A stretch of DNA of 64,000 nt from Manduca sexta (Eukaryota > Arthropoda > Insecta > Lepidoptera > Sphingidae). Below are positions 24,393 through 64,000 of this stretch, one piece after another. A program made the translations under genes and the position numbers. Position 1 is the stretch's first letter. Each line of letters starts with the position of its first letter. The notes beneath the pieces were generated by a model, which worked only from the letters and a program-made list of their open reading frames with translations, searched no databases and was not told where the DNA came from. The DNA lies in assembly GCF_014839805.1 (NCBI RefSeq), contig NC_051117.1:5146001-5210000 (forward strand), read 5' to 3'.

Positions 24393-24480
24393 TAGCGCCA
24401 TCTGCAGATTGTGTGTACAATATCAAAAGTATACAATGCATTCGATGAACTATTTTATCTAATTTAAAATAGAGGGCGCT
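24393..24480. promoter_or_regulatory. two opposed CTCF-like motifs
   Basis: TAGCGCCATCTGCAG (24,393-24,407) reads CTGCAGATGGCGCTA on the minus strand. AGAGGGCGCT (24,471-24,480) lies on the plus strand. Both resemble the CTCF core AG(A/G)(T/G)GGCGC. They lie about 310 bp from the tRNA-Asp gene. The match is by eye; binding is inferred. Confidence 0.35.
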
Positions 24481-33120: not shown

Positions 33121-36100
33121 ATGAAAATCGGATTCATCGGCGGCGGCAGACTGGCCTTCGCCTTGGCCAATGGATTTATCTCAGCTGGTAAACCACTATT
33201 ATAGTTTAATTTTGAATTATCACTATCCACACTCTTCGCAACACAGAAACAATATTATCAACCGATCCTTAGATCAAGAAATTGTTGTTCTGAGGACCGA
33301 TTATTCCTTGCCGTCTATAAATCAATAATGAAACCTTATTGGCTTGCTATTTATAAATGCTTGATACCTATGTCAAACAATTTGGAAAAATGCTGGTACC
33401 TAAGTATTCTAATTCTTAACGAGCATGAGACATTTTGATTTAAATCTCTTTGGTCCATTAATTGTATGATTCCTCTTCCCAATTCTAATTGAAATGGTAG
33501 TTTTATGATTTTATTCGCCACAGAAGAACCTTCGTTATTAGTGGAGCCATAGAATACCTATAGGCGATTACCCATCTGGCATCGTATCTTGAGTATCGAC
33601 GACCCCCTAAAAATGGTGTATGTATTTTCGGATTAGTAATTTGTTGTTTATATTTTGTGTATGACTTACAGGTTTGGCAAAACCCGATGAAATCACAGCC
33701 AGTTGTCATCCATCGGACACAGTAAGCGCGGAGGCCTTTAAGGTAAAATAAGAACCACAAAATCATTATCGTGGCTTTATATTTTAAAAAAAGTTAACCA
33801 AAAAAATAGTTGGTCATGTGAGTAAATAAACAAGTTAGTGTACCGGCGAATCAGAAACTGTAATTATGACCTAAGTTTATATTTTCCTTAAATCGAAAAG
33901 TTTTGGTTGGCAGGTAAATGGTTATAACAACACACAACACAAATAGTAGTCCGAATCAATTATAAACAAAAAATAAAATTCATAAAATATATTGTCTGCA
34001 ACCTGTTGTCATAAAGTCAAATCTCCTTAACAAACTCATTAGCTGGTTGCTAACCTCAGTATTTCTGAAACAGCCATCGTGGCCAAAGTTACCAAACGTT
34101 TATGTTACTTATCTCGACAAATATTTACAACATATTAAGTATTTTATAACTATAAATATAGTTTAGTTTGCAAACATTGTCTCCGTCTTAATGTTAAGTC
34201 ACTCCTATCTCTTATCATTATGATAACATATTACGTCTTTTACTGAATTATGTACAAAATTAAATAAATAGAAATTTTATATGTATTTACCAAATACCAA
34301 TGCAACATTATATTATAACATATTGGCTACTTTAATAGAGCCAGTTTTATATGAATAATTACATTATTATATTAAAATGTAACAAATAACTACCCAATTT
34401 GACAAAATAATATGGAATGTAAACTATAACGAGGCTCTATATTCCAAGATTTTAATGCGTTCGCTTTTAACATATTACGCGAATCGAACTTCCAACATAC
34501 TAACAAACAGAAAGACAAATAAATTTTGGTTATTATTTTTAATAATACTATTACCGAATATTATCAATTATATTTATGTAGGTGCTTAATTGCTTATAAC
34601 TTTAAAATTAATTTCGCTTTTATACTTCTAAATTATAAAGCAACACTACACATTTATTGTAATTGTATTTCAGAAATTAGGAGCAACGGCGCTATTTGAA
34701 AACAAGCCAGTGGTGGAGCGATCAGAAGTCGTGATAGTTTCCGTGAAGCCTGACGTGGTGGTGCCAGCGTTGAAGGAAATTAAAGATCTACCCGAGGCCA
34801 AGAACAAACTGTTCATATCTGTCGCTATGGGCATCTCGATAGCGTCTATTGAGAAGGTAAAAATAAAAATATCGTTTTCTTTTCAATGTGTTCAATAGTA
34901 TTCTCACGAGTTTCGGTATGTGTTTCAAGTATCATCTTCACGCTAAGTCAAAAATTGAAAGGATCCGTCTAATTTACATTTTAAGTTTCATAAAGTCTTT
35001 CCCAAACTATTTAGAACTTATTCCTTGCTTACTTTATATTGCGACTGTGATTACCTTTCCAAATAAAAGCTACTACACGTGGCCTATTTTTATTTGATAT
35101 TCACGAGTGGTACACCCTTTGATTAAATTTATAATATTGGTCTGGGAGAGTTTGTTTAGAAATATAGAAATGAACCGTCCTAACTCATTCTCAGCAGATT
35201 GTAAGCAACTGACTACCTAAAGAATTTAGAGTGTTTCCTTAATTTGTATTTAGATAAGTACCATATTATTATATCGGTATTACCGTATTATACTTGAAGC
35301 ATCAGTAAATCAAATCTTTAATCCCCAGGTACTTCCTCCCGAGGCTAGAGTCATACGCGTGATGCCAAACACACCAGCTCTTGTCAAAGAAGGCGCTGCT
35401 GCTCTGAGCCGAGGGTCCAAGGCGACTGCTGAAGACGCGAAGCTCACAAACCAACTGTTCAGTGCGGTGGGCACGTGTGACGAAGTGCCCGAGTATCAGA
35501 TGGATGCTGTTACAGCGTTGAGTGGAAGTGGTCCTGCTTATGTGAGTTACTGTTGTATGGAGCGAAAGTTTATTGCATACGAATGCTGTCATGGATTTGG
35601 GTCGGCCATTGATAGATAAAATGTCATTTTATACTTAGAAAAAAAAAGATATTATTATTATAGTGTGACCAACATACGTTTAAGGGATTATGTAAATAAT
35701 TAACAATAATCGCCATTTATTGTTGATCGCTGTATTTGTACTGTAATGCACAAATTCCCGACTGCTACATTATTTATATCAAGTACTAAAATTCACGAAA
35801 CATTTTTTTTAACCAAAGTATCCTTTTTTAGATATAAAACCAAGTTACACACTGAAGTCTTATTTAATTTACTTGTTTTTCGTTTATTTCAGGTCTACAT
35901 GCTAATAGAATCTCTGGCTGAGGGTGGGGTCCGGTGCGGTCTTCCTCGGGACCTGGCTTTAAAACTGGCGGGGCAGACCACCCTGGGAGCAGCTGCGATG
36001 CTGCGGACGGGAGGCCACCCGGCAGTCCTGAAGGATAATGTCACCAGCCCCGCTGGGTCGACTGCAGAGGGAACTTATCACTTAGAACAACATGGTATTC

Positions 36101-36532
36101 ATCTTATCTATGAAATTTTAACTACCTATATCCCTCATTAGCTGTTTGAATATTCTGGACACCGCGTATTCCTTATTGCGATTTTTGGGTCACTGCAACG
36201 GCTGGCGAGTTAACATTTTCGATGTGTAATGAAAATAACTTTTTTATGTGCATTTTTGATATTCCAATAACGATCTGATTTATTTACTTAGTTTACTGTC
36301 TAAGGACACCCTTAGAATTTACACTTCAGACAAGGCAAACGACGCTATCATTAATTTTCGTGATGCTATGCATGTCTAGCATGAATTAGGTACAAGGTAG
36401 AATTTGAAATAAGGCATATCGAAATAAGCTTATTTACACAATTAAATTTCAGGATTCCGGTCAGCAGTCATCGGTGCAGTGATGGCCGCTAAAGAAAGAT
36501 GTACAGTAGTAAACAAACAACTGAATAACTAG
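33121..36532 (+). CDS. P5cr: pyrroline-5-carboxylate reductase, complete, six coding exons
   Basis: Catalyses the NAD(P)H-dependent reduction of 1-pyrroline-5-carboxylate to proline, the last step of proline synthesis. Coding exons: 33,121-33,187; 33,672-33,742; 34,674-34,856; 35,329-35,541; 35,893-36,094; 36,453-36,532. All introns are GT-AG and all phases close, giving 271 residues, the usual family length. The N-terminal Rossmann loop is GFIGGGRLA (residues 4-12). The middle holds VIVSVKPDVV, ISVAMGISI and RVMPNTPALVKEGAA. The signature helices hold TALSGSGPAY, LAGQTTLGAAAML and LKDNVTSPAGSTAEG, with conserved SP-G-ST near the substrate site. Arg replaces the Asn usual after GxG, as in PYCR3-type proteins. 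A pyrimidine-rich acceptor (33,101-33,103) lies 17 nt before the ATG, so the 5' UTR is spliced. No transit peptide is obvious. CDC14 follows downstream on the same strand. Confidence 0.96.
33188..36452 (+). other. P5CR introns, no further genes seen
   Basis: The five introns span 33,188-33,671; 33,743-34,673; 34,857-35,328; 35,542-35,892; and 36,095-36,452. They are AT-rich and contain only chance open frames, such as 34,888-35,097 plus and 33,503-33,766 minus. The donors are GTAAAC, GTAAAA, GTAAAA, GTGAGT and GTATTC. Confidence 0.8.
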
Positions 36533-36830
36533 CAACACACAATACAATAATTTTCTGCAAGATGCAATATTGTGATACGTAGTCTTGCATATGTTGATGT
36601 TATTAGTGTACCTACCTACTATATTCAAAGTGCCATTTGCATCCAATCTCAATTTGTTAAAAAATAACGTCTTAATTTTAAGCTATAAAGTAAATTTATT
36701 TTTTTATCTTTTATTTTATTGTAGATACCTCTTTGCAAACAAGGCAGCGTCAAACTACTGCTCTACATATTATGGTGTCGAGAACTTGTTTCATACAAGT
36801 ATTTATTTGGTTTTACCTCACTTACGTGCA

Positions 36831-36836
36831 AATAAA
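36831..36836 (+). terminator. probable poly(A) signal of P5CR
   Basis: AATAAA lies about 300 nt after the P5CR stop codon and is the first canonical hexamer on this strand downstream of it. The resulting 3' UTR length is ordinary. Confidence 0.55.
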
Positions 36837-36956
36837 AGTACTAAGTAGATACCACATTCACAGTTATAATTTTTAAGGTACCACAAAACAAACGTTATAT
36901 GTGGACAAGTCAAATATTATGAGAGGTAGATTACGTATTAGTATAAATATTGCAAA

Positions 36957-37170
36957 CACGCCGTCTATTATAATTACAAGAAAACTACATATAATATAGC
37001 GCCATCTATTGAAATTATATAAAACTACATTTTATGTAGTGCCATCTATTATGATTTTGTGAAAACTACTTTTGATATAGCGCCATCTGTTAATAGTATA
37101 CCCAAACTATACAGAAAAGCGCCATCTATTGAATAATATAAAATCTAGGTTTCAAATAGTGCCATCTATA
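36957..37170. repeat. ~40-bp tandem array carrying GCCATCTA cores
   Basis: Six units begin near 36,957, 36,998, 37,038, 37,079, 37,118 and 37,158, so the spacing is 39-41 bp. Each carries AG(C/T)GCCATCT(A/G)TT or a one-base variant (the first has GCCGTCTATT). The DNA between the cores is AT-rich and has diverged much more than the cores (an AAAACTAC segment recurs in three units), which suggests the core is what is kept. On the minus strand the core reads AATAGATGGCGCTA. The array lies between the P5CR poly(A) signal and the CDC14 promoter region. It could be a boundary element, a regulatory repeat or a decayed minisatellite. Confidence 0.85.
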
Positions 37171-37220
37171 TTTAATAACGTAATAGTAAATACCACTTAA
37201 CTATTTTGTAGTAAGAAAAA

Positions 37221-37323
37221 CAGATGTCGCTAATGACGGTTCTTCAAGTAGCGTCATCTATATTTAAATCATTTTAAAGCTTTTACCATTTTTCTTTATG
37301 TCAAGACTTATAGATGTCACTAC
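37221..37323. repeat. three further single motifs, both orientations
   Basis: CAGATGTCGCTA (37,221-37,232) and TAGATGTCACTA (37,311-37,322) lie in the opposite orientation to the array; TAGCGTCATCTA (37,249-37,260) lies in the same orientation. They share the ATCTA/AGATG core with one changed base and are not in register with the 40-bp spacing. Confidence 0.55.
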
Positions 37324-37379
37324 AAAACAATCGTTGACAGATAATTCTAAGCATAATCTGTGAGCAGTCGGATTGGAAA

Positions 37380-37999
37380 CGAGTTTTTTGTCTTCCGTTT
37401 TCAACGGCTCAAGTATAAAATAAAATGAAACGTCACTTCTCTAAATGGAGAGGACTGAATTGAATTAAATCAATTAAATTGCATTCAGGCTGAACGTGGA
37501 TCCGCGACCTTGCTGCGGCGCAACCATTCGTATTGTTATTTGTCACGCCCGGTGCTTTTCAGTGGTTCTGTTTACATGTTATTGGTGTAGTTAAGCCGCC
37601 GCGGTTCGCCGTCCCTATTAGAAACAAATAGAATGCAAGTCTTATTCAGTGGCGCGAAGGCTCCGCAGATTCGGTGCGAGCAGACTTGACCTTATATTTC
37701 GAGTAAAGGAATCGACCCACGCTGATTAATAAAGAGACTCCTACGCGCCTTTGACGACGAAGTCTGCTTCGTCTTAACACTACAATGAACGAAATTACGC
37801 GACATGCTAGCGTTACCGTCATCTACTTATAAGAACAAAGTGTTTTTTTGCCTATAAGTCTATATTTTTGTGTGGTTAACTTCCTGTGATCGCTAGTGTT
37901 ATAATGTTCCAATAGTTGTTGCAAGTTTTGTTCAGATTCGGAAACGTTATCTGCTAATATTAATTGGAAATTTGCCATATTTCCAGTTGCTATTTACTG
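37380..37999 (+). promoter_or_regulatory. CDC14 promoter region and inferred noncoding first exon
   Basis: A GC-richer, CpG-containing block (for example AAGCCGCCGCGGTTCGCCGTC near 37,593) lies immediately upstream of a strong donor ACTG/GTAAGT at 38,000. Two initiator-like TCAGTGG sites lie at about 37,558 and 37,646. I infer that the noncoding first exon of CDC14 ends at 37,999 and splices to 41,838. The exact start is not determined. Confidence 0.5.
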
Positions 38000-62276: not shown

Positions 62277-62725
62277 TTCTTTATATTTGATATTTTATAA
62301 TGGAAAACAATAGCTCCCTTAATACCACAGTGTTTCGTATTATTTTTCAATATCTCTCGTACATTTTCCTTTATTTGCTATTTTATAATGGAAAACAATA
62401 GCTCTCTTAATACCACAGTGTTTCGTATTATTTTTCAATATCTCTCGTACATTTCCTTTATTTGCTATTTTATAATGGAAAACAATAGCTCTCTTAATAC
62501 CACAGTGTTTCGTATTATTTTTCAATATCTCTCGTACATTTTCCTTTATTTGCTATTTTATAATGGAAAACAATAGCTCTCTTAATACCACAGTGTTTCG
62601 TATTATTTTTCAATATCTCTCGTACATTTTCCTTTATTTGCTATTTTATAATAGAAAACAATAGCTCTCTTAATACTACAGTGTTTCGTATTATTTTTCA
62701 ATATCTCTCGTACATTTTTCCTTTT
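62277..62725. repeat. 88-bp tandem repeat, five copies
   Basis: ATTTTATAATGGAAAACAAT recurs at 62,292, 62,380, 62,467, 62,555 and 62,643, a spacing of 87-88 bp. The central copies are almost identical and the first and last have more changes, as expected from unequal exchange or slippage. Each unit has AATACCACAGTGTTTCGTAT and CAATATCTCTCGTACATT. Frames reading through it on both strands (62,388-62,576 plus; 62,340-62,525 minus) are by-products. It lies about 320 bp before CDC14 coding exon 2. Confidence 0.95.
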
Positions 62726-63041
62726 TTATATTGTTTTGAGAAATTTTTAAATTTGTCTTGTTACGTGTGTTAATTCTATTGGTTTTTATAATCATAAAAA
62801 ATTCATCAATCGCGCATTATGTTTCTCTTAGCAGCATTGAAACGTAGCAATGCTGGGCAATAGTTTCCACTAGATCCACTAGATTCCAACTGGTTGGTTC
62901 CTAGTGTTTTGTCCGTAAGCCGATAGAGTGCACACGATGCAGGCGAATCTAGCTTCGCACCAGAAAACATGTTTTAATTCCTCTCACATCGTGGAATATT
63001 GTAATCTTTTCCCTACCTACTTATGAAATTTTCTTTTCCAG
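62726..63041. other. end of CDC14 intron 2
   Basis: Noncoding DNA leading to the acceptor TTTTCTTTTCCAG, whose AG is at 63,040-63,041. No other feature is seen. Confidence 0.6.
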
Positions 63042-63301
63042 ACAGGCTCTACTTCGCAACACTGAAGACCGGCTACAAACCTAAGCCGACTCGCAACAGC
63101 AAATACTTTCACATAGAAGATGAGATCGTCTATGAGAATTTCTACTTCGACTTCGGTCCGTACCATCTCTGCCATCTGTACCAGTTTTGCAACAAACTCA
63201 ATGAGGAACTGGAGAAGAATCCGAAGAAGAAGATCGTTTACTACACGAGCAACAATGAGACCCTTCGGCTTAACGCAGCGTATCTTATTGGGAGCTATCA
63301 G
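63042..63301 (+). CDS. cdc14: CDC14 phosphatase, second coding exon (partial gene)
   Basis: With one base from the previous exon, this 260-nt exon encodes 87 residues. They include DRLYFATLKTGYKPKP, YFHIEDEIVYENFYFDFGP, HLYQFCNKLNEELEK, KKKIVYYTSNNETLRLN and AAYLIGSYQ, the N-terminal half of the non-catalytic DSPn domain of CDC14. That domain shares the substrate groove with the catalytic domain. It is entered through acceptor TTTTCCAG at 63,041 and left through donor CAG/GTTGGT at 63,302 in phase 0. The catalytic exon with the HCxxGxGR-type signature is not in the window, so the gene continues to the right. Overlapping frames on the other strand and in frame +1 are shadows of this exon. Confidence 0.93.
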
Positions 63302-64000
63302 GTTGGTTCGTGCTATGATTTTTAATGTTTCTTTCATGAGTCCACGAGGTTCTTGCTCAAATCAACCAACAATCTATTGGGGCCTTGAAGAGTTTTCAGA
63401 TATTGGACTAATATAATTGCAGGTGCAAGTAGACTGCGTGTGGAAAAGAACTGATTTTTGTTAATTACTGATGGACCCGGCAGACGTTTTCTTGCCACAG
63501 TCTCCATTTTATGTAAATTACCTTTCATTTTTTTAGGTCTCGATAACTAGCGGGTCCAAAATTATCCTATGATTCAAGGTGAAACTAATTCAACTTGCGT
63601 GATTTCGGTGATAAGCGCATATGAAAAAATATTTTTATACAAAAATATCACCCAAATTTATTCCCGTTGATTTTTCAAAATTATTATTTAACACAAGCCT
63701 TGTCCTGACAATTATCCTGATAATCCGGTAGAACCATTCTCAACTGATGCTTATACATACATGTGACAATTGACTTTATTTATATAAGTTAATTCATTTA
63801 TTAATATTCATTTATAAGTATTCATTTTGATTATGGTGGTTCCAACAGAACTCTTGTTTCAATACAAGCGTAGTAGAGATATTTTGTGACACCTAATTGT
63901 TTCACGTGAATGTATTTAGGTTACATTTCTATAGTTCCTAATGAGTTCATACAAAATCTGATGTTATTTTAAGCCTAAATACCATAAAACTGATGACCTT
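63302..64000. other. CDC14 intron 3, open at the window edge
   Basis: After the donor at 63,302 I find no segment continuing the DSPn domain (expected next: a VIYL-type strand and a proline-rich loop), so this is intron to the end of the window. Confidence 0.6.

What the first reader, a model, noticed from the sequence alone, without database searches (positions are those of the whole stretch)
36957..37323. Regularly spaced GCCATCTA array between P5CR and CDC14, a possible insulator
Six units with 39-41 bp spacing share AG(C/T)GCCATCTAT, while the sequence between them has diverged. Three more single motifs follow in both orientations. On the minus strand the core is TAGATGGCGCTA, which resembles the arthropod CTCF core (AG-(A/G)-(T/G)-GGCGC); the shorter GCCAT also suits YY1/Pho. 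The array lies between the poly(A) signal of one gene and the promoter of the next on the same strand, where a boundary element would make sense. Regular spacing of about four helical turns would place all cores on the same face of the DNA. Conserved cores within decayed spacers argue against simple minisatellite decay.
Basis: partly seen in the sequence, partly recalled or inferred. Interest (0 to 1): 0.75.

Follow-up and report, generated by a model that had tools for sequence, protein, structure and literature searches.

The report
CTCF-like site cluster, probable boundary
Behind a proline-synthesis gene of an insect lies a row of DNA words that look like landing sites of the genome-folding protein CTCF, and in the same genome close pairs of these words on opposite strands nearly always point away from each other, as reported at domain borders in human DNA.

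Summary
The array is real: six cores 39-41 bp apart (36957-37169), then three looser ones to 37321, two of them reversed. It is a partly decayed tandem array whose cores changed less than its spacers (6/72 v 51/174). Its minus-strand core, TAGATGGCGCT, gives the two best matches in 64 kb to the fly CTCF matrix (recalled from memory); three of six units and one reversed site pass, three units fail. The word occurs 1993 times genome-wide against 91 for its control. Of 90 sampled sites, 43 lie in one interspersed family and 36 have unrelated flanks. Spacers at 20 other paired-site loci do not significantly resemble the array's. Strongest result: opposite-strand pairs with gaps of 20-50 bp point outward at 21 places (18 without near-copies) and inward at 1, the arrangement reported at human domain boundaries; the inward count for wider gaps did not complete. 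Best reading: a tandem-amplified cluster of CTCF-like sites acting as an insulator; protein, binding and boundary function are inferred. The same-face argument fails (3.8 turns), and the CDC14 promoter is not located: its recognised exon lies 26 kb away.

The parts
36957..37323 (.). whole cluster of CTCF-like sites (six tandem units plus three looser sites)
36957..36968 (-). edge unit core, degenerate (3 mismatches to AGYGCCATCTAT); 3.3 bits on the fly CTCF matrix
36998..37009 (-). unit core; joint best fly-CTCF match of the 64 kb (18.9 bits, p 2.5e-7)
37038..37049 (-). unit core with GGCAC variant; 4.9 bits, fails the fly matrix
37079..37090 (-). unit core, CAGATGGCGCT; 16.3 bits
37118..37129 (-). 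unit core; joint best fly-CTCF match (18.9 bits)
37158..37169 (-). unit core with GGCAC variant; 4.4 bits, fails the fly matrix
37220..37231 (+). opposite-orientation site CAGATGTCGCT, outward-pointing partner of the array; 13.0 bits
37250..37261 (-). displaced array copy (88% over 25 b to the 37158 unit); TGACGC core, 5.1 bits
37310..37321 (+). weak opposite-orientation site (AGATGTCAC), 2.7 bits
35893..36102 (+). P5CR dimerisation domain; the last exon reads by eye to a stop near 36530, AATAAA at 36831
63038..63304 (+). CDC14 N-terminal (DSPn) exon; coding appears to run in from an upstream exon that was not found
24394..24480 (.). second outward-pointing pair of CTCF-like sites in the window: 24394 (-, 18.7 bits) and 24466 (+, 14.6 bits)

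Best explanation
The cluster is a CTCF-binding insulator or boundary element made by tandem amplification. A single TAGATGGCGCT site was duplicated in 40-bp steps to give a row of left-pointing sites, with one opposite, outward-pointing partner at 37220. CTCF (with CP190, cohesin or other partners) would bind several sites, redundantly because they are many and some have decayed, and would separate the P5CR transcription unit from what lies downstream. Shown here: the array, better conservation of core than spacer, the match to the CTCF matrix, genome-wide over-representation of the word, and the outward-pointing pair bias. Inferred: that CTCF is the protein, that it binds here, and that binding makes a boundary.
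For: Fly CTCF matrix (recalled): 13 hits at p<3e-5 in 64 kb against 3.8 expected; 4 of the 13 lie in this cluster, including the two best of the window. Core 6/72 changed against spacer 51/174 (Fisher p 2e-4; without the last unit 5/60 v 36/145, p 0.007). AGYGCCATCTAT: 1993 places against 91 for the reversed control. Outward pairs GCGCCATCT N20-50 AGATGGCGC: 21 places (18 after dropping 3 near-copies), control 2; inward pairs: 1, control 2; 18 v 1, two-sided p 8e-5. The outward hypothesis was written down before these counts; one of the 18 (C1:4481603) had helped suggest it. Outward with gap 51-81: 20 places (15 after dropping 5 near-copies), control 0. Spacers of the 18 outward pairs: 0 of 153 comparisons at p<=0.005. 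Bases just inside the searched core, left free by the pattern, lean as in the fly matrix: over both arms of 18 pairs, +1 is A/G in 29 of 36, and +2 is T in 24 and A in 4 of 36. Human work finds outward (<>) CTCF clusters enriched at domain boundaries and inward ones depleted at short range (PMC7422557, passages including its abstract). The fly Fab-8 insulator has two close CTCF sites (stated in PMC4562119, passages). A butterfly Hox boundary holds clustered predicted CTCF motifs, two of them conserved across Lepidoptera and Trichoptera (PMC10945631, passages).
Against: Three of six units fail the fly matrix: two carry GGCAC, which it nearly forbids, and one is an edge unit; 37250 and 37310 fail too. 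With the human matrix only two units pass and they are not the window's best hits. Units arose by duplication, so their number is not independent evidence, and the core-versus-spacer test treats them as independent. At +2 the fly matrix (recalled) favours G about as much as T, the pairs favour T. At 71-120 bp around sampled sites there were 1 outward and 2 inward hits. 54 of 90 sampled sites share flanks with other sites or look repeat-borne, 43 of them in one family, so the word can be abundant without function. No occupancy, contact or cross-species data. The inward control for gaps 51-81 did not complete.
Confidence: 0.6

Rival explanations
1. Ordinary, partly decayed minisatellite in which the CTCF-like core is incidental.
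For: Tandem Repeats Finder calls a plain 40-41 bp array and the spacers inside it are homologous. Core conservation could partly reflect chance and the small number of units.
Against: Core changed less than spacer. The same core stands in other pairs and arrays whose spacers do not significantly resemble the array's (20 loci, best L057 at p 0.008 before correction). The word is 22-fold over control genome-wide.
Confidence: 0.2
2. Remnant of a mobile element, the motif being a transposase-binding or terminal repeat; outward pairs would be inverted ends.
For: 43 of 90 sampled sites lie in one interspersed family and 11 more share flanks with another sampled site or were set aside by eye. One other locus (L057, C10) shares 81% over 53 b with a unit.
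Against: The array's surroundings (36300-37900) matched nothing in the loci fetched by then except that unit. Outward-pair spacers are mutually unrelated and pair distances range over 37-88 bp.
Confidence: 0.1
3. YY1/Pho sites, i.e. a Polycomb response element.
For: GCCAT is present in five of six units; the YY1 core (recalled) shares ATGGCG.
Against: 37220 and 37310 have GACAT, 37250 GTCAT, and 9 of 13 cores in the C1 array lack GCCAT. Bases outside the core lean as in the CTCF matrix. No Pho matrix was scanned.
Confidence: 0.07
4. Sites of another, undescribed insect zinc-finger architectural protein with a CTCF-like motif.
For: The GGCAC, GTC and GGCGT variants recur in clusters, which a fly CTCF matrix covers only in part.
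Against: The fly CTCF matrix (recalled) allows GTC and GGCGT at 13-16%. CTCF transcripts were found in almost all arthropod assemblies examined (PMC5094011, passages).
Confidence: 0.13

Closest known systems
Clustered / divergent CTCF boundaries of vertebrates (PMC7422557, passages; PMC9279147 and PMC10703910, listing with start of abstract only)
   Same: Rows of same-facing sites with an outward-facing partner; outward pattern enriched, inward depleted.
   Different: Here the pairs counted are 37-88 bp apart (the searches covered 29-90), not kilobases; insect genome; the array is made by 40-bp tandem duplication; no occupancy data.
2xCTS, close double CTCF sites (PMC4562119, passages)
   Same: Two or more CTCF motifs close together, tandem or opposite.
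   Different: Those are defined by CTCF/BORIS occupancy in mammals, with variable orientation; here opposite pairs at gaps 20-50 are nearly only outward.
Fly Fab-8 and the butterfly Antp-Ubx boundary (PMC4562119; PMC10945631; passages)
   Same: Insect boundaries with clustered CTCF motifs.
   Different: Hox boundaries, the butterfly one with Hi-C and mutagenesis behind it; this locus lies behind a metabolic gene and has no such evidence.
Mobile-element-spread CTCF sites (mouse SINE B2; recalled)
   Same: A repeat family here also carries CTCF-like words, in some copies two about 20 bp apart.
   Different: The array itself showed no kinship to that family in the comparison made.

Membership tests
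CTCF-site insulator / boundary element | Matches the CTCF binding matrix above chance | tested here: met
   13 hits at p<3e-5 in the window (3.8 expected), 4 of them in the cluster incl. the two best; 3 of 6 units pass (fly matrix recalled). Human matrix: 2 of 6 units, not among its best hits.
CTCF-site insulator / boundary element | Bases outside the searched core follow CTCF preferences | tested here: met
   +1 A/G 29 of 36; +2 T 24 v A 4 of 36 (G, also favoured by the fly matrix, only 6), both arms of 18 outward pairs
CTCF-site insulator / boundary element | Outward (<>) orientation typical of boundaries | tested here: met
   Genome-wide 18 v 1 at gaps 20-50; at this locus <<<> among passing sites, resting on one partner; inward control at gaps 51-81 unanswered
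CTCF-site insulator / boundary element | CTCF occupancy in vivo | not testable with these tools
   no ChIP data
CTCF-site insulator / boundary element | Hi-C boundary or enhancer blocking | not testable with these tools
   no Hi-C or reporter data
CTCF-site insulator / boundary element | A CTCF gene in this genome | not tested
   no search made; literature only (PMC5094011, passages)
CTCF-site insulator / boundary element | Conserved in relatives | not testable with these tools
   The genome search states that this genome has no relatives there
Minisatellite | Tandem, mutually homologous units | tested here: met
   5.2 copies, 67-68% matches
Minisatellite | Same whole unit repeated elsewhere as a satellite family | tested here: inconclusive
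   20 other pair loci: none significant after correction; L057 81% over 53 b; whole-genome search with the array unanswered
Mobile-element remnant | Flanks shared with other copies | tested here: inconclusive
   none among the loci fetched beyond one unit; not genome-wide
YY1/Pho element | GCCAT core in every site | tested here: not met
   first unit GCCGT; 37220 and 37310 GACAT, 37250 GTCAT

The most novel reading that the evidence does not exclude
This insect genome carries a sequence-readable boundary code: close pairs and rows of CTCF-like sites, here seen 37-88 bp apart, that nearly always face outward, have unrelated spacers and so arose many times, and are kept by selection. The array behind P5CR would be a case where one arm was amplified by tandem duplication. 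Boundaries could then be predicted from sequence alone in insects without contact maps.
Probability: 0.4. Interest if true: 0.75.

Novelty: new member of a known kind. Interest (0 to 1): 0.6.

Why it matters
How insects other than flies insulate their genes is little known; a silkmoth Hi-C preprint raises CTCF, CP190 and Mod(mdg4) as possible extrusion barriers (PMC11326380, passages). A strong, strand-aware pair bias visible in bare sequence gives a direct test: map CTCF and contacts, and ask whether outward pairs mark barriers. It also suggests a route by which boundary strength can evolve quickly, by tandem duplication of a single site.

Tried and rejected
Same-face helical phasing: rejected, 40.2 bp is 3.8 turns. 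A fixed 40-bp spacing as a rule: rejected; other tandem pairs lie 32-59 bp apart (which allowed 29-59) and outward pairs 37-59. Independence of all nine motifs: rejected, units are duplicates. Simple satellite: no relative significant after correction in the loci sampled. Viral and prokaryote collections: 3 hits that look like coding or chance matches, and 0 hits. A literature search for the word itself found 1,583 papers; the 40 listed looked unrelated. Searches showed no report of an outward CTCF pair bias in Lepidoptera, but three lists were capped (20 of 824, 12 of 74, 8 of 11); I read passages of five papers (PMC10945631, PMC11326380, PMC5094011, PMC7422557, PMC4562119) and titles or starts of abstracts of the rest. 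The CDC14 upstream coding exon was looked for by a loose peptide pattern and not found. Asked for and never answered: inward pairs at gap 51-81, tandem GCGCCATCT pairs, the ATAGAGGGCGCT count, and a whole-genome search with the array itself. Not run: AGYGACATCTAT count, search for the CTCF gene. An earlier neighbour tally with a hand-made repeat list (28 non-repeat sites; within 120 bp 5 outward, 3 tandem, 0 inward) was replaced, where repeat status came chiefly from flank similarity.

Full report
What is there. The window contains a tandem array at 36957-37169 with core starts 41, 40, 41, 39 and 40 bp apart. Four units hold AGYGCCATCTAT exactly, one has one mismatch, and the first is a degenerate edge unit. 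Looser matches follow at 37220 (-), 37250 (+) and 37310 (-). At up to 2 mismatches the window has 16 matches, 8 of them in this cluster; 0 of 100 shuffles reach 16 (mean 7.5). The 37250 site shares 25 flanking and core bases at 88% with the 37158 unit, so it is a displaced copy. Aligning the six units, the 12 core columns show 6 departures in 72 cells against 51 in 174 for the rest (Fisher p 2e-4); dropping the last unit, whose trailing spacer may not be homologous, gives 5/60 against 36/145 (p 0.007). This treats related units as independent and is therefore generous.

Surroundings. P5CR lies upstream on the same strand (PF14748 at 35893-36102; its last exon reads by eye to a stop near 36530; AATAAA at 36831). 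At E<=0.01 no Pfam domain was found between 37 and 52 kb in any frame of either strand; the minus strand of 52-64 kb was not scanned. Whether the 37.5-38 kb region is a CDC14 promoter is therefore open.

What the word is. Read on the minus strand the core is TAGATGGCGCT. With the fly CTCF matrix (MA0531.1, recalled; all columns sum to 1902), the window gives 13 hits at p<3e-5 against 3.8 expected. The joint best are the array units at 36998 and 37118 (18.9 bits, p 2.5e-7); 37079 (16.3) and the opposite-strand 37217 (13.0) also pass. The units at 37038 and 37158 (GGCAC) score 4.9 and 4.4, the edge unit 3.3, 37250 5.1 and 37307 2.7. With the human matrix (recalled) only two units pass, and they are not among its best hits. 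The third best fly hit of the window, 24394 (-, 18.7), has an outward partner at 24466 (+, 14.6, sixth); the fourth, 45514 (17.1), stands alone.

Genome-wide. The window's genome (470 Mb, 4056 contigs) holds AGYGCCATCTAT at 1993 places against 91 for the reversed pattern. I compared 90 of these with their flanks, leaving out further copies of the same locus (L005-L007, L012, L019, L126) and the C1 array (L004). 43 fall in one interspersed family, 9 more in four small groups with shared flanks, and 2 were added by eye, 54 in all; 36 have unrelated flanks (67 of the sites first compared). Some copies of the family carry two words about 20 bp apart. Around the 36, further matrix hits at 20-70 bp were 7 tandem, 4 outward and 0 inward against about 0.7, 0.4 and 0.4 expected under an independent-base model; several are weak. 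At 71-120 bp there were 1 outward and 2 inward. Real sequence holds more hits than that model (0.51 per kb at 9 bits or more in outer flanks, 0.34 in the window), so the enrichment is somewhat overstated. 26 of the 36 were the discovery set; the 10 fetched later gave 3 tandem, 1 outward and 0 inward at 20-70 bp.

Pairs. GCCATCTAT in tandem with gaps 20-50 occurs at 34 places against 0 in the control; 9 of these are one coding-looking 45-bp repeat on C10, two are a 52-bp array on C1 with a different spacer, and two are this array. The spacers of 20 pair loci (leaving out this array, the C10 repeat, one repeat-borne locus and near-copies) were compared with the array's; none was significant after correction, the best being L057 at p 0.008. 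L057 shares 81% over 53 bases with one unit, two cores included. In these 20 loci I counted 5 outward and 0 inward transitions at 9 bits and up to 130 bp; L063 on C18 reads <<<<<>>> within about 460 bp.

The decisive count. From such loci I wrote down the outward hypothesis and then counted. Outward pairs (GCGCCATCT N20-50 AGATGGCGC) occur at 21 places, 18 after dropping 3 near-copies, control 2. The same words facing inward occur at 1 place, control 2. 18 against 1 gives a two-sided p of 8e-5; one of the 18, C1:4481603, had helped suggest the idea. With gaps 51-81 there are 20 outward places, 15 after dropping 5 near-copies (judged on the first 80 letters shown), control 0; the inward count for that range was asked for repeatedly and never answered. 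The 18 spacers are mutually unrelated (0 of 153 comparisons at p<=0.005), and the bases just inside the searched words, which the pattern left free, lean as in the fly matrix: +1 A/G 29 of 36, +2 T 24 and A 4 of 36, though the matrix favours G at +2 as much as T and the pairs do not. A shared inverted element would have given related spacers unless very old.

Reading. In human DNA outward CTCF clusters are enriched at domain boundaries and inward ones depleted at short range (PMC7422557, passages including its abstract). Close double CTCF sites are known in mammals and in the fly Fab-8 insulator (PMC4562119, passages), and clustered predicted CTCF motifs mark a butterfly Hox boundary (PMC10945631, passages). 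The simplest account of the above is that the word is a CTCF site and that this array is a tandem-amplified insulator. Shown: array, conservation contrast, matrix match, over-representation, orientation bias. Inferred: the protein, binding at this locus, and boundary function. At this locus the outward partner is a single GTC-variant site, so the local pattern alone is weak.

Limits. No occupancy, contact or comparative data; the matrices are from memory; the interspersed family shows that the word can spread without function; half of the units fail the fly matrix. On recheck one fact was mended (43 rather than 54 sampled sites in the one family); the odds did not need changing.

Noticed in passing
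own genome, e.g. L017, L025, L027, L028, L031, L032 near position 1500: An old interspersed family holds 43 of 90 sampled AGYGCCATCTAT sites; some copies carry two same-facing words about 20 bp apart, a possible spreader of CTCF-like sites.
   Followed up: partly
window 24394-24480: A second outward-pointing pair of CTCF-like sites (18.7 and 14.6 bits, about 72 bp apart) with no array.
   Followed up: partly
L063 (C18:13952237 region), about 1169-1631: Eight CTCF-like sites in about 460 bp, five left-facing then three right-facing: the clearest boundary-like cluster seen.
   Followed up: partly
L034 (C1, about 34700-35300): A tandem array of the same core with a 52-bp period and a different spacer; 9 of 13 matched cores there carry GACAT or GACGT instead of GCCAT.
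   Followed up: partly
window 62284-62724: Five copies of an 88-bp minisatellite, 98% matches, about 300 bp before the CDC14 DSPn exon.
   Followed up: no
L047-L055 (C10:606932-607345): A coding-looking 45-bp repeat that contains GAGCCATCTAT, probably by chance; left aside when the paired-site spacers were compared.
   Followed up: no
PMC10945631, methods passage: The paper gives JASPAR MA0205.1 as its CTCF matrix; I recall that number as GAGA factor and MA0531.1 as fly CTCF. Unverified.
   Followed up: no
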